From IMG/VR virus record IMGVR_UViG_3300018067_000024, positions 1 to 29,016 of that record: a DNA stretch of 29,016 bases; one strand, given 5' to 3'. The DNA is from a virus. The notes below the pieces were generated by a model that was not told the origin of the DNA, searched no databases, and saw only the letters and a program-made list of their open reading frames with translations. Shown piece after piece: positions 455 to 26,983 of this stretch. Made by a program: the position numbers and the translations under genes. Numbering within the stretch: position 1 is the first letter of the stretch; each line of letters starts with the position of its first letter.

Positions 455-1104
455 GAGACAAAGACTTTTACGGTTGGGGCCAGATTCTCATGGAGAATCT
501 GCCCACATACTGGGAAGAAGACGACTTCATGCAGCAGTTCCTGATGGCTATAGGGTTTGAGTTTGACCCTGTAGATCGCTTTACCAGATTCATGGTAGAT
601 AGCGAAATTCAAACTGCCATAGACCAAAGACTAGTTGCTAACCTGGAACCGATGCACTCGGCCTGGTTTGCGCGCACAGCTAACGAAGCAGCAATGAATC
701 TGTGGGAAGAGATGTTCAGCGCGCCTGCCGATCCGGGCTTAACCCTTGAAGAACGCAGGGCTGGCATCATCACTCGCATGAAGTCAACGGCTACCCCTAC
801 ACCAGCATACATCAAAGAGCAGATTGAACAGTATGCTGAAGAGATGGTAATCGTTGAGAAGTTCGATCTACCAGGGAATGACCTTAGACGGTACAGCTTC
901 GATATCCGCATCCTCAAACCAAAGGGTTTCCCGCCCAATGTGGCAACGAACATCGATCTCATGGTTAGACGCATCAAGCCATCCCACCTAGGGTACTCCA
1001 TTATCTACAGTGAAGTAACCTGGCATGGCGATGCAACCAATATGTGGAACAATACCTGGGCGGATCTTGGTAACGTATCTTGGGCAGATCTGAGGTTTGG
1101 ATAG
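451..1104 (+). CDS. YmfQ/DUF2313-like tail protein (Mu gp48-type)
   Basis: 217 residues, starting at an ATG that overlaps the baseplate J stop by four bases. The hallmark stretch is around residues 98-126: L-T-L-E-E-R-R-A-G-I followed by a T-P-T-P-A-Y-I-K-E-Q-I segment. In this family these residues describe how successive tail-tip subunits are built. The C-terminus is rich in Trp (W-H-G-D, W-N-N-T-W-A-D-L, W-A-D-L). It follows baseplate J directly, the standard order in Mu-like and many siphovirus tail modules, which supports the call. The product would be a virion tail-tip component assembled in the cytoplasm. No enzymatic motif is visible. Confidence 0.75.
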   Translation: MRDKDFYGWGQILMENLPTYWEEDDFMQQFLMAIGFEFDPVDRFTRFMVDSEIQTAIDQRLVANLEPMHSAWFARTANEAAMNLWEEMFSAPADPGLTLEERRAGIITRMKSTATPTPAYIKEQIEQYAEEMVIVEKFDLPGNDLRRYSFDIRILKPKGFPPNVATNIDLMVRRIKPSHLGYSIIYSEVTWHGDATNMWNNTWADLGNVSWADLRFG

Positions 1105-4925: not shown

Positions 4926-6053
4926 GTGCAGAATATCCGTGGCATTCTGGGAACATGGGCTTGGTTATTTGTCTGTGGTGTTGGTGGAGTAGCGGGCACT
5001 ATTCTACTTCTCAACATCACAGCGGTAAGGGTAGCTGATGCTGTGCCAGATCCATTACCTACAGCTACCCTTGCTCCGACGACTAACCCTCTGCCGCCTG
5101 TAGTATTTCAGGTTACGGTGAACCAGAACGACGAGGGTGATGCTCAGATTGCCATTGCACAGGCTACCCCAGAAGGTACCCCAATTCCTGGTGCTCCTAC
5201 ACCTATTTCTCTGGCCGTCAATATTGATGATCAAGATGGCGACAGGGTAATAACGGTTACTCAGGATCAAGGGGAGATCCCCATAGTAACAGATGCTGAA
5301 ACGGGTGAGCCAGAGCCTACACCTACTCCAGTAGTTGTGGCTACGCTGGTGGTACCTGCTGGTCAGCCTCTGCCCAAGCCTGCTGTCAAGCCGCAAGCCA
5401 CGGTGATTATCAATACTCCAACGCCGGTGCCAGTTGAGGAACCTGAACAAGCTATAGTAGAGGGTGAGCCAGAGGAGATGCCGGAGACTCCTGCGGTTGC
5501 AGGGTTGCAGCCAAATGCAGCCCCTACCCCCACCCCCCTACCCGAGGAGGAAGAGGAACAGAGGAACAGTGCAGCCTCCACAGCTACTCCGGCTCCAACC
5601 AACACATCTGTGCCGGTAGCCCCTGGAGAACCTACCAATACTCCTGTTCCAGTGGCGACGGCTGCTCCTGTGGTACCTACTTCCATACCTACGTCTGGCG
5701 TTGCTCCAGAGGTACCTACAGCTACTTCAGTGCCAGTAGTGCCACAAGCTACTGCGACACCTGTACCACCATCGCCACCAACGTCTACACCTGTTCCCCC
5801 ACCAATACCCACTAATACCCCCGTACCCCCACCACAACCCACCCCGAGACCTACCAATACTCCAGTCCCGCCTCCAACGCCGGTACCCACTGAACCACCT
5901 TCAACTGGTAGGCCTCCGCCTGAGCCAACACGTACTCCAATCCCTACATTCACTCCACGTCCGACATTCACTCCACGTCCGACTTTCACACCAAGGCCAA
6001 CGTTTACACCGCGCCCGCCATTACCAACGTTGGACTTGCCATTCAGGCCGTGA
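4926..6053 (+). CDS. Membrane-anchored Pro/Thr-rich stalk protein
   Basis: 375 residues from a GTG at 4926 without a clear Shine-Dalgarno. Residues about 8-34 are one membrane helix (L-G-T-W-A-W-L-F-V-C-G-V-G-G-V-A-G). A modest folded-looking part follows (about 50-125, with V-F-Q-V-T-V-N-Q-N-D-E-G-D-A-Q-I and V-N-I-D-D-Q-D-G-D-R-V-I-T-V). The rest is an extended linker of P-T-P, T-N-T-P-V-P-P and T-P-V-P-P-P units, ending in four P-T-F-T-P-R hexapeptides and a short L-D-L-P-F-R-P tail. An anchored, extended surface or periplasm-spanning protein is likely; a spanin-like role is possible given the lysis neighbours, but is not shown. Such linkers are typical of extracytoplasmic Chloroflexota proteins. 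Confidence 0.7.
   Translation: MQNIRGILGTWAWLFVCGVGGVAGTILLLNITAVRVADAVPDPLPTATLAPTTNPLPPVVFQVTVNQNDEGDAQIAIAQATPEGTPIPGAPTPISLAVNIDDQDGDRVITVTQDQGEIPIVTDAETGEPEPTPTPVVVATLVVPAGQPLPKPAVKPQATVIINTPTPVPVEEPEQAIVEGEPEEMPETPAVAGLQPNAAPTPTPLPEEEEEQRNSAASTATPAPTNTSVPVAPGEPTNTPVPVATAAPVVPTSIPTSGVAPEVPTATSVPVVPQATATPVPPSPPTSTPVPPPIPTNTPVPPPQPTPRPTNTPVPPPTPVPTEPPSTGRPPPEPTRTPIPTFTPRPTFTPRPTFTPRPTFTPRPPLPTLDLPFRP
5946..6017 (+). repeat. Four 18-bp tandem units encoding T-F-T-P-R-P
   Basis: Units start at 5946, 5964, 5982 and 6000. The first two are identical; units three and four differ only at synonymous positions (ACA/ACT/ACG, TTC/TTT, CGT/AGG/CGC, CCA/CCG). Every difference keeps the hexapeptide. 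Confidence 0.9.
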
Positions 6054-6348: not shown

Positions 6349-6387
6349 TTTTCCAGATCACCCGTTTTGCCACGGGCGGGTGAGAGT

Positions 6388-6450
6388 AGGCCCCTGAAAC
6401 GGTTGCGGCGCTTGCCCGCCGCTAGCAACCGGAGTAGGGGGTCTTTCTCT
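6388..6450 (+). terminator. Probable terminator of the late plus-strand operon
   Basis: An elongated hairpin can form: AGGCCCC at 6388-6394 pairs (with one G-U) with GGGGTCT at 6438-6444, and CGGTTGC at 6400-6406 pairs with GCAACCG at 6425-6431. An inner GGCG/CGCC caps it. A pyrimidine run TCTTTCTCTT follows. It lies 40 bases after the last late gene and faces the minus-strand terminator next to it. The inner part is strong enough to be a separate structured element. Confidence 0.5.
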
Positions 6451-6498: not shown

Positions 6499-7569
6499 TT
6501 AGGGAATTTGAGCTGGAGCTGGTGTTGTTACTGGGATTGCCTCTGGTGTCGGGGTTGCTGTTGGGATTGCTGGAGGAGCCACTGCTGGCACTGCTTCTTG
6601 GACTATTACGACTGGCAGTACCTCTGGCGTAGTTGTAGCAGCCACAGTGGGAACGAGGGTGGGTGTAACTGTGGGAACCACAGTTGGGACGATGGTAGCG
6701 GTCGGAACTACGGTTGCCAAGTGCTGGTCACAGATATGAGGTAATAGTGGCATCTCGCCACCCTGAGCAACGGCCTTGGGGACGTCATTGCTGCGGCGAA
6801 TTTCCCACATCTGGTTGGCGGGTTCGTAGTGGCAGTACTCACTCAGAGTAGAACCACCTCCTGATCCGCCACTTCCTCCACCGCCTCCTGTGCTTGAAGC
6901 ACTAGGCTGTTCTCCGCCTGCTGTACCGCCTGGAACGCTAAACTGTCCAGGTACTCCACCTGGGCTGCTGGCAGGATTTATATTGCAGTCAGGGCACCCA
7001 CCACCCGAACCTCCACCTCCTGTAGGTGTTGGTGCGGTTGTGATCGGGGTTGGTAAACTCTGTCCACCTGGCCCACAGTCTGGGCATGGCACTGGCGTGT
7101 TGGCTGGTGGAGTGTTAGTGGCCGCAGCCGTTGGTATCGGTGTCGCCGTAGCAGGAGTCGGTGTAGTTCCGAACTGACCTGATGGCGGCGGTGTGTTAGT
7201 TGGCGGGACCGAAGTTGGTGTTCCTCCGCCACCCGATCCTGGTGTTGATGTTGGCGGAATTGATGTCGGCGTGTTGATTGGCGTATTGGTTGGAGCCGAC
7301 GTGTTGGTAGGACCAGGAGTACTTGTCGGTGCTACCCAGGTTGGTGTTGTTTCAGGGGTAGCTGTTTTGGTCTTTGTAGGGTAGGGAGTTTTTGTGGCCT
7401 GACAGTAGTAATCCCAATCTTCGTAGCAGGCTGAATAAGTTTCTTCGTCCTCGTCAGTGGTGTGTGCTTTTGCTGGTGTCGCAACAGCGGTAGTTATGAG
7501 TGGGACGAGGAGTGCAAGTAGCATTCCTCCGACCAACAAGAACCACCAAGGGATAGTGCGCTTGATCAT
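6499..7569 (-). CDS. Secreted or membrane-anchored Thr/Pro- and Gly-rich stalk protein
   Basis: 356 residues. The ATG at 7569 has GAGGATC just upstream. Residues about 6-32 (W-W-F-L-L-V-G-G-M-L-L-A-L-L-V-P-L) are a signal peptide or anchor, ending near A-K-A-H. A short Cys-containing segment follows (Y-S-A-C-Y-E-D-W-D-Y-Y-C), then P-T-N-T-P, T-S-T-P-G linkers and Gly-rich stretches. Two C-P-D-C motifs lie in the Gly-rich part. A small globular-looking island comes next (C-H-Y-E-P-A-N-Q-M-W-E-I-R-R, then H-I-C-D-Q-H-L), and then more T-P-T repeats to the end. It has the style of Chloroflexota surface proteins and parallels the stalk protein at 4926-6053, though encoded on the other strand. Function is unknown. 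The C-P-D-C pairs could bind metal or form disulphides. Confidence 0.7.
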   Translation of the reverse strand: MIKRTIPWWFLLVGGMLLALLVPLITTAVATPAKAHTTDEDEETYSACYEDWDYYCQATKTPYPTKTKTATPETTPTWVAPTSTPGPTNTSAPTNTPINTPTSIPPTSTPGSGGGGTPTSVPPTNTPPPSGQFGTTPTPATATPIPTAAATNTPPANTPVPCPDCGPGGQSLPTPITTAPTPTGGGGSGGGCPDCNINPASSPGGVPGQFSVPGGTAGGEQPSASSTGGGGGSGGSGGGSTLSEYCHYEPANQMWEIRRSNDVPKAVAQGGEMPLLPHICDQHLATVVPTATIVPTVVPTVTPTLVPTVAATTTPEVLPVVIVQEAVPAVAPPAIPTATPTPEAIPVTTPAPAQIP

Positions 7570-7584
7570 TGGATCCTCGTAAAA

Positions 7585-7617
7585 AGAAACCCCCTGTGGA
7601 TGTCCTACACAGGGGGT
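7585..7617 (-). terminator. Terminator between the 50-aa ORF and the stalk gene
   Basis: A perfect 10-bp stem, ACCCCCTGTG (7589-7598) with CACAGGGGGT (7608-7617). On the minus strand it is followed by UUUCUUUUU. The plus strand also has CTCTTTT, so it could act in both directions. Because no separate promoter is obvious for the stalk gene at 7569, this may work as a partial terminator with read-through. Confidence 0.75.
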
Positions 7618-7626
7618 CTCTTTTAC

Positions 7627-7779
7627 CTACGGCTTGGGTGCGGGTTGGGGCTGCGTCGGCGGGTTTGGCTCAGCAGGCGGAGTTGTTGGCTCCTGCTGCT
7701 CGCCTGGCCTCGGCTGCGCCGGCTTCTCACCCGGCTCTCGAGGATCCCGTGGATCCCGAGGCTCCTGTGGACTTGACAT
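7627..7779 (-). CDS. 50-residue Pro-rich charged peptide
   Basis: The ATG at 7779 has a very strong ribosome site (AAGGGAAGGAGGGAGC) just upstream, and the TAG is at 7627-7629. The sequence is almost wholly disordered: it opens with S-S-P-Q-E-P then R-D-P-R-D-P-R-E-P-G, continues with E-K-P-A-Q-P-R-P-G-E-Q-Q-E-P and ends in P-N-P-P-T-Q-P-Q-P-A-P-K-P. There is no Cys or Trp and no membrane segment. It is flanked by its own promoter and structured leader upstream and a terminator downstream, so it looks like a dedicated single-gene unit. The family is not recognised. A small phage protein that binds a host target is one possibility. Confidence 0.65.
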   Translation of the reverse strand: MSSPQEPRDPRDPREPGEKPAQPRPGEQQEPTTPPAEPNPPTQPQPAPKP

Positions 7780-7804
7780 ATGCTCCCTCCTTCCCTTGAA
7801 AGTA

Positions 7805-7941
7805 GAGTTAGCAGGCTACTTGCGACGTTTGTGACAACACCGCCACCCACTGGATTAAACTGCCGCTCGACAATCCAATCGCCTCACCGCCGTAGGCCCA
7901 CCCCGTATGCAGACCTACAGTCACCCTCGCCTGCTAACTCC
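7805..7941 (-). ncRNA. Structured 5' leader RNA of the 50-aa ORF
   Basis: Read on the minus strand, the segment begins at the predicted transcript start. It can form a closing helix of 12 perfect pairs (7929-7940 with 7805-7816). Nested inside without conflict are a 5-bp helix (7920-7924 with 7831-7835), a hairpin UGUAGG/CCUACG (7914-7919 with 7891-7896) and an 8-bp hairpin AUUGGAUU/AAUCCAGU (7872-7879 with 7849-7856, one G-U). The ribosome site lies just after the closing helix. No reading frame of note fills it. It does not match a tRNA or any riboswitch I know. It could be a cis-regulatory leader or a free small RNA. Confidence 0.5.
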
Positions 7942-7947
7942 AGCGTA

Positions 7948-7976
7948 AGTGTAGCAAACAAAAACCCCGCTAGCAA
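7948..7976 (-). promoter_or_regulatory. Promoter for the structured leader and 50-aa ORF
   Basis: On the minus strand: TTGCTA (7971-7976), 17-bp spacer ending in GTTTGC, then TACACT (7948-7953). The predicted start is about 7940-7941. The same -35, spacer length and GTTTGC-TACA core occur at the helicase promoter (10826-10854). The -35 lies inside the stem of the preceding terminator. Confidence 0.7.
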
Positions 7977-8010: not shown

Positions 8011-8460
8011 TTAGCCAGAAAGCGTGTAGCTATCAGCCTCTTCGTCGATCTCCACGTCGAAACCCTTGCTCTTGAGGAACTTGGCGTAGAAAGCGACATC
8101 GAAGTTCTTGTAGTTCTTGGCGTCTGAAAGCTCTTCGATACCCTTCTTACTGGCGAAGCCGGCGGCACGCTTCTTGATCTCTGCCGAGGTACCACCCCTC
8201 TTCATTGCCCGCATGATGAAGTCTCTCATGCTGTTGGCATTAGGGGTGTAGGAACCTTCTTCAGCATCGGCCTTGGCGACAGTCTTCTTGACAGCACCGT
8301 TGGTCTTGGCAACGCCGTTGGTCTTGGACTTGGCGATAGGAGCAGCAGCCTTCTTCTTGCTCGAGACTACGACTACCTCTTCCTCTTCGTCATCCTCATC
8401 CTCGTCTTCGACCACGGGCTTGCGAGACGCCTTGACAGGCGTAACTTTTTTGGTTGGCAT
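8011..8460 (-). CDS. Histone-like hypothetical with acidic and Lys-rich linker and C-terminal helical domain
   Basis: 149 residues. I start at the ATG at 8460 (M-P-T-K-K-V-T-P-V-K), which has AAGGAG eight bases upstream; a longer open frame upstream runs through the promoter. Residues 1-15 are basic, about 16-30 are a block of Asp/Glu, and about 33-65 are a Lys/Ala/Thr linker reminiscent of histone H1 tails. The C-terminal 75 residues look folded and helical (M-R-D-F-I-M-R-A-M-K-R-G-G-T-S-A-E-I-K-K-R-A), like a small winged-helix or helix-turn-helix domain, with F-Y-A-K-F-L-K-S-K-G-F-D-V. A DNA- or chromatin-like packing or regulatory role is inferred. No named family is recognised. Confidence 0.75.
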   Translation of the reverse strand: MPTKKVTPVKASRKPVVEDEDEDDEEEEVVVVSSKKKAAAPIAKSKTNGVAKTNGAVKKTVAKADAEEGSYTPNANSMRDFIMRAMKRGGTSAEIKKRAAGFASKKGIEELSDAKNYKNFDVAFYAKFLKSKGFDVEIDEEADSYTLSG

Positions 8461-8474
8461 TTCGATTCTCCTTA

Positions 8475-8521
8475 GCAACCACAATAGATTGGGAAGTCCG
8501 ATTTCCCTGATAATCGGTTGC
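8475..8521 (-). promoter_or_regulatory. 5' UTR with two mutually exclusive helices
   Basis: In the predicted leader of the 8460 gene, GCAACC (8475-8480) can pair with GGTTGC (8516-8521), next to the AAGGAG ribosome site (8468-8473). Alternatively CCGATT (8498-8503) can pair with AATCGG (8512-8517). The two share bases 8516-8517, so they compete. Confidence 0.3.
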
Positions 8522-8532
8522 TGCACAAAAGC

Positions 8533-26679: not shown

Positions 26680-26983
26680 TGAAGTAGAGGTGGCGGTAGA
26701 TCCACTAGCGCAACTGCCACCAATGCCAACGCCTGATCCTGGCATGATGTGGATCAGGCTTACCATGAACACAGCCATCAGTGAAGAGATGGCTATGGAC
26801 ATGATGCATGACATAGCTGACAATCTGCGGACCGTGACCCATATGGTCAACTATGCAGAGTTTGATGCTAACGTCAACGGCGTTATACTTACCTACGAAA
26901 AGGAAATACTACCTGCGATAATTGGTGATCTTACACCAACTCCAACGTGGTTGTTATCGGGAGAGCCGACAGTTAATGCCTAG
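26669..26983 (+). CDS. Hypothetical protein
   Basis: 104 residues from an ATG at 26669, with AGGGGGAG upstream and an 11-base overlap with recA. The N-terminus is acidic and Pro-rich (V-D-P-L-A-Q-L-P-P-M-P-T-P-D-P). The middle is a Met-rich helical region (M-M-W-I-R-L-T-M-N-T-A, E-E-M-A-M-D-M-M-H-D-I). The C-terminus contains Y-E-K-E-I-L-P-A-I and a Thr/Pro-rich end. It has no Cys and no clear membrane segment. The tight coupling to recA suggests a shared message. No family is recognised. Confidence 0.65.
   Translation: MPIDEVEVAVDPLAQLPPMPTPDPGMMWIRLTMNTAISEEMAMDMMHDIADNLRTVTHMVNYAEFDANVNGVILTYEKEILPAIIGDLTPTPTWLLSGEPTVNA

What the first reader, a model, noticed from the sequence alone, without database searches (positions are those of the whole stretch)
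7805..7941. 137-nt leader that folds into a closed multi-helix RNA from its predicted first base
On the minus strand a promoter (TTGCTA-17-TACACT) predicts a start at 7940-7941. Exactly there begins a 12-bp perfect helix closed by its partner 112 bases later. Three further helices nest inside without conflict. The strand then runs directly into a strong ribosome site and a 50-aa ORF. This reads as a structured cis-regulatory leader or a phage small RNA of unknown type.
Basis: partly seen in the sequence, partly recalled or inferred. Interest (0 to 1): 0.62.

Follow-up and report, generated by a model that had tools for sequence, protein, structure and literature searches.

The report
Phage leader RNA closed at its start
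In a group of uncultivated phages, the messenger RNA for one tiny proline-rich protein is predicted to begin with an RNA fold whose closing helix starts at the predicted first base; relatives rewrite the letters but keep the helix, so the fold is selected, probably to protect the message, though that role is untested.

Summary
The 137-nt minus-strand leader folds at -66.2 kcal/mol (z -6.7; 0 of 200 shuffles as good). The same transcription unit (extended -10, leader, strong ribosome site, Pro/Glu-rich small ORF, terminator) is present in six distinct phages of an uncultivated group. In five, a helix begins about 6 nt after the -10 and closes 8-11 nt before the ribosome site. Its letters differ, yet 100% of pairs are kept and 6 of 9 show two-sided changes. 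The inside is variable: three phages carry a multi-branched domain with shared junction letters (GAGGG and AGUA), two a plain hairpin, and the sixth has almost no leader. No Rfam family and no isolated phage matches. Most likely it is a cis 5'-end cap that stabilises a short monocistronic mRNA beside an open ribosome site, in the manner of the ompA 5' stabiliser. A processed small RNA or a protein-binding leader remains possible. New variant of a known kind; moderate interest.

The parts
7948..7976 (-). Promoter: -35-like TTGCTA (7976-7971, inside the upstream terminator hairpin), 17-nt spacer, TG-extended -10 TACACT (7953-7948)
   Evidence: Sequence; TGN followed by a TACACT-like hexamer recurs at the same place in all six relatives
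7929..7940 (-). P1 5' arm GAGTTAGCAGGC, starting at the predicted +1
   Evidence: covariation
7805..7816 (-). P1 3' arm GCCTGCTAACTC
   Evidence: covariation
7924..7928 (-). Junction GAGGG directly above P1, identical in window, L006 and L016
7817..7821 (-). Junction AAGTA directly before the P1 3' arm; AGTA shared by window, L006 and L016 (with GAG opposite it this resembles a bulged-G / loop E motif, by eye only)
7892..7918 (-). Inner hairpin P2 (GTAGGTCTGC / GTGGGCCTAC)
   Evidence: MFE; a hairpin at this place but of different sequence in L006 and L016
7853..7880 (-). Inner hairpin P3 (GATTGGATTGTC / GGCAGTTTAATC)
   Evidence: MFE; hairpins of other sequence in L006 and L016
7822..7846 (-). 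Last inner hairpin P4; pairing ambiguous in the window (MFE pairing, or GTGGCG/CGTCGC as in relatives, 6 kcal/mol less stable)
7793..7804 (-). Short single-stranded linker between P1 and the SD; all that is left of the leader in L007
7786..7792 (-). Shine-Dalgarno AAGGAGG
   Evidence: in all six relatives
7627..7779 (-). 50-aa Pro/Glu-rich small ORF (MSSPQEPRDPRDPREP...); Pro/Glu-rich ORFs of about 26-68 aa at the same place in relatives
   Evidence: no PHROG or Pfam match
7581..7617 (-). Intrinsic terminator (ACCCCCTGTG...CACAGGGGGTTTCTTTTT) ending the unit of about 360 nt
   Evidence: sequence; hairpin + T run after the ORF in all relatives

Best explanation
A self-contained phage transcription unit makes a short monocistronic mRNA (about 360 nt) for a small Pro/Glu-rich protein. 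The 5' end of the mRNA is locked at +1 in a helix (P1) that closes 8-11 nt before a strong ribosome site. By burying the 5' terminus in a duplex and keeping the start site beside it free, the leader would hinder 5'-end-dependent decay (RNase E/RppH or RNase J type) and raise the yield of the small protein. Shown here: the unit, the predicted start geometry, selection for P1 pairing, and variability of what P1 encloses. Inferred: transcription start, stabilisation, high expression, and that the multi-branched interior is an optional extra domain.
For: P1 keeps 45/45 pairs over five distinct leaders, with 6 of 9 pairs changed on both sides; covariation score 0.811 against 0.334 +/- 0.082 shuffled, 0/500, and slid controls at most 0.300. 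The position is constant: P1 starts 6 +/- 1 nt after an extended -10 and ends 8-11 nt before the SD in all five; chance per leader 0.15-0.3%. Among SD-ATG sites in the related loci only this locus shows such a helix. The interior is exchangeable: multi-branched in window, L006, L016; plain hairpin in L004 and L015; absent in L007. The multi-branched form sits on three separate branches of a gene tree, so the interior was probably lost repeatedly while P1 stayed (small tree, unrooted). The SD is about as accessible with as without the leader in most relatives. Known precedent: 5' stem-loops plus a strong SD stabilise ompA and other mRNAs (reviews PMC7509114, PMC3997798).
Against: No transcript, half-life or 5'-end data. 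L007 manages without the structure, so it is not essential for the gene. A bare hairpin would be enough for a stabiliser, so it does not explain why three phages keep about 110-150 nt of interior with shared junction letters. The host and its RNases are unknown. Only five distinct leaders were found.
Confidence: 0.5

Rival explanations
1. The structured part is the product: a small RNA of about 137 nt, cut from the mRNA in the single-stranded linker, that acts in trans or binds a phage or host protein; the small ORF is its carrier or a second product.
For: A compact closed fold with z -6.7; junction letters GAGGG and AGUA shared by three otherwise divergent interiors, which a mere stabiliser would not need; a single-stranded linker follows P1.
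Against: The interior is missing in L004 and L015 and everything is missing in L007, while the ORF and SD remain in all six. The leader has no terminator of its own.
Confidence: 0.2
2. A true cis-regulator (riboswitch or protein-binding leader, e.g. autoregulation by the small protein) in which the junction binds a ligand and changes translation or stability of the small ORF.
For: Multi-branched fold, conserved junction nucleotides of bulged-G type by eye, position directly before the SD.
Against: No alternative SD-sequestering fold is evident and SD accessibility hardly changes with the leader in most relatives. No terminator/antiterminator is evident in the leader. The interior is not conserved and is absent in half of the relatives. 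No Rfam match.
Confidence: 0.2
3. Antitermination leader (put-RNA-like) or leader-peptide attenuator that controls genes beyond the terminator after the small ORF.
For: The structure starts at +1, and a small ORF with a terminator follows; in the window, L007, L015 and L016 a same-strand ORF lies beyond the terminator.
Against: In L004 and L006 the convergent operon's terminator element follows directly, so no same-strand gene is evident to be controlled.
Confidence: 0.05
4. The 12-bp inverted repeat is a DNA feature: ends of a small mobile element (MITE-like) inserted between promoter and ribosome site, with L007 as the empty site.
For: Perfect inverted repeat with a presence/absence pattern at one site.
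Against: Arms differ between phages yet pair, with G-U wobbles in L015 and L016; always exactly at +1; no second copy in the related records searched; no consistent target duplication by eye.
Confidence: 0.03

Closest known systems
5' stabiliser stem-loops of bacterial mRNAs (E. coli ompA 5' UTR and others)
   Same: Helix at the very 5' end, short single-stranded gap, strong SD; would protect a short mRNA
   Different: ompA-type stabilisers as I know them are simple stem-loops; here three of five enclose a multi-branched domain with shared junction letters. No decay data here
Phage and bacterial structured 5'-UTR motifs in Rfam (e.g. manA and wcaG in cyanophages, PMC2864571)
   Same: Structured RNA in the 5' UTR of phage genes, found by comparison
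   Different: No match to any of 4227 families; only sub-threshold, chance-level hits, mostly to the upstream terminator hairpin
T4 gene 32 leader pseudoknot (PMC3014915)
   Same: Structured phage leader before one gene, with unusually stable mRNA
   Different: Gene 32 uses a pseudoknot and autogenous repression; here a 5'-closing helix and no sign of repression
Type I toxin mRNAs with closed leaders (hok, tisB type; from own knowledge)
   Same: Short mRNA, structured leader, tiny ORF, terminator
   Different: The small protein is hydrophilic and Pro/Glu-rich, not a membrane peptide; the SD is not buried by the leader; no antisense partner was identified

Membership tests
5'-terminal stem-loop mRNA stabiliser | Helix that includes the first nucleotides of the transcript | tested here: met
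   P1 starts 6 +/- 1 nt after the -10 in five phages; the start is predicted, not mapped
5'-terminal stem-loop mRNA stabiliser | Pairing, not sequence, is conserved | tested here: met
5'-terminal stem-loop mRNA stabiliser | Ribosome site left accessible beside the helix | tested here: inconclusive
   Accessibility similar with and without leader in most; SD partly paired with the ORF start in several; L004 pairing varies with length folded
5'-terminal stem-loop mRNA stabiliser | Longer mRNA half-life because of the helix | not testable with these tools
   needs RNA decay measurements
Any Rfam RNA family | Match at the family's gathering score | tested here: not met
   permissive searches
tRNA or tmRNA | ARAGORN model match | tested here: not met
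Attenuator or antiterminator leader | Controlled gene downstream of a terminator on the same strand, in all relatives | tested here: not met
   Not evident in L004 and L006
MITE-like insertion | Multiple copies / target duplication | tested here: not met
   single copy; no consistent duplication by eye

The most novel reading that the evidence does not exclude
A new phage RNA class: a +1-anchored helix closing a multi-way junction with a bulged-G-like GAG/AGUA motif that binds a phage or host protein, perhaps released as a stable small RNA, and reduced to a bare 5' cap or lost in sister phages.
Probability: 0.25. Interest if true: 0.6.

Novelty: new variant of a known kind. Interest (0 to 1): 0.42.

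Why it matters
It is a clear comparative case in phages where natural selection keeps a helix at the predicted first transcribed base while the letters and the enclosed domain change. The series multi-branched, hairpin, none at one locus in sister phages is a natural experiment on what a 5' cap of RNA structure does. It also shows structured RNAs, absent from Rfam, in an uncultivated phage group.

Tried and rejected
Rfam at gathering and permissive thresholds: nothing but chance-level hits, mostly to the terminator hairpin. DNA search of 50,697 phage records: one 42-nt chance-like match, E 0.1. Protein search of the upstream genes in isolated phages: none, or helicase at about 25% identity. 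GTDB genomes: no relatives. A MAFFT alignment of whole leaders does not align the inner helices, so no covariance model was built; pair counts were made on P1 only, with arms placed by hand, which leans towards the helix, though slid and shuffled controls were run. The fine folding scan timed out and was repeated coarsely. L033, pulled in by the second element's motif, is an unrelated phage by its sequence context.

Full report
Observation. The -10 is also TG-extended. The leader folds at -66.2 kcal/mol, z -6.66, none of 200 shuffles as stable, and P1 has pair probabilities near 1. The -35 lies inside the terminator hairpin of the upstream gene. The unit ends in its own terminator at 7617-7581, so the predicted RNA is about 360 nt with one small ORF.

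Where it lies. The window is a 29-kb virus record. Its neighbours are a helicase, a 142-aa and a 76-aa protein, a Lys/Glu-rich protein directly upstream, and on the other strand a DnaB-like helicase, primase and DNA polymerase III alpha. Relatives were found only as uncultivated contigs, two of about 90 kb; isolated phages show at best about 25% identity in the helicase.

Relatives. Six distinct phages carry the same unit: upstream gene, extended -10, leader, GGAAGGAGG or GAAAGGAGG, Pro/Glu-rich small ORF, terminator. L002 is identical to the window here and L020 is near-identical to L015. In L004 the script took an upstream ATG that overlaps the SD; the ORF meant is the next one, MFEDPKAPDPRPEP..., seen. 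Leaders (predicted +1 to the SD): window, L006 and L016 multi-branched (about 144-181 nt); L004 and L015 hairpins (64-72 nt); L007 about 10 nt, unstructured.

Selection on P1. Over the five structured leaders the nine P1 pairs counted are all standard (45/45), six pairs have two-sided changes, and one pair occurs as AU, CG, GC and UA. Shuffled controls reach the covariation score in 0/500 and the percentage paired in 0/500; slid helices fall to 15.6-50% paired. A +1-anchored helix of >=9 bp ending just before the SD occurs in 0.15-0.3% of shuffled leaders, yet in all five real ones. Among SD-ATG sites of the related loci only this locus has such a helix, although a free helix of >=10 bp occurs near 3.5% of random points; the site count there includes duplicates from overlapping loci.

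Interior. Three multi-branched leaders share GGCGAGGG at the top of the P1 5' arm and AGUAG before the 3' arm. GAG facing AGUA fits the bulged-G (loop E) consensus by eye; this is a lead from memory, not a test. The inner hairpins differ in sequence. In L006 and L016 a hairpin stands directly before the AGUA; in the window that hairpin can form only at a cost of 6 kcal/mol against the MFE. The window's inner fold is thus unsettled. On a small gene tree the multi-branched form occurs on three separate branches, next to sisters with a hairpin or none, which suggests repeated reduction; with six tips, no root and possible recombination this is inference.

Mechanism. The part under selection is the closure of the 5' end, and the enclosed domain is exchangeable. 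The SD is not hidden by the leader in most relatives. No same-strand gene is evident after the terminator in L004 or L006, so attenuation or antitermination is unlikely as the shared role. The best reading is a 5' cap that stabilises the mRNA, as known for 5' stem-loops with a strong SD (PMC7509114, PMC3997798). Steps not shown: start site, decay, yield, host nucleases. The shared junction letters keep a protein-binding or small-RNA role open.

Known or new. No Rfam match, not a tRNA, single copy in the records searched. It works like a 5' stabiliser on the anatomy; membership in that functional kind needs decay data. New variant of a known kind.

Noticed in passing
window 6356-6450, + strand: A second structured element between convergent operons, found in 8 distinct related records: hairpin ACCCG/CGGGU, then a terminator-like helix GRCCCC/GGGGUC-UUUC with a GAA/AGUA (loop E-like) internal loop, a covarying helix, and a nearly invariant tip GCGGYGCUUGCCCGCCGCUAGC. 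Six pairs show two-sided changes; no Rfam match. CGGCGGG of the first hairpin could also pair with CCCGCCG of the tip in most relatives.
   Followed up: partly
window 7627-7779, - strand: The small ORF belongs to a fast-changing set of Pro/Glu/Asp-rich peptides (26-68 aa, e.g. MFEDPKPPDPEPEPQPEP) kept behind the same SD in all six phages; no family match for the window's copy.
   Followed up: partly
window 8011-8526, - strand: Upstream gene has an almost invariant N-terminus QQPI(I)REIGLPNL(L/I)WLLRRIE, an acidic/Lys-rich middle and a conserved C-terminal domain (NSMRDFIMRAMKRGG...); no Pfam, PHROG or phage relatives outside this group.
   Followed up: no
window 26720-26856 (-) and 481-617 (+): Strong folding outliers in the coarse scan (about -5.5 in scaled units), within or near coding sequence.
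   Followed up: no
window 4926-6053 (+) and 6499-7569 (-): Two long Pro/Thr-rich proteins with an N-terminal hydrophobic segment by eye (PTNTPVPP-type repeats), which hint at a Chloroflexota-like host; host not tested.
   Followed up: no
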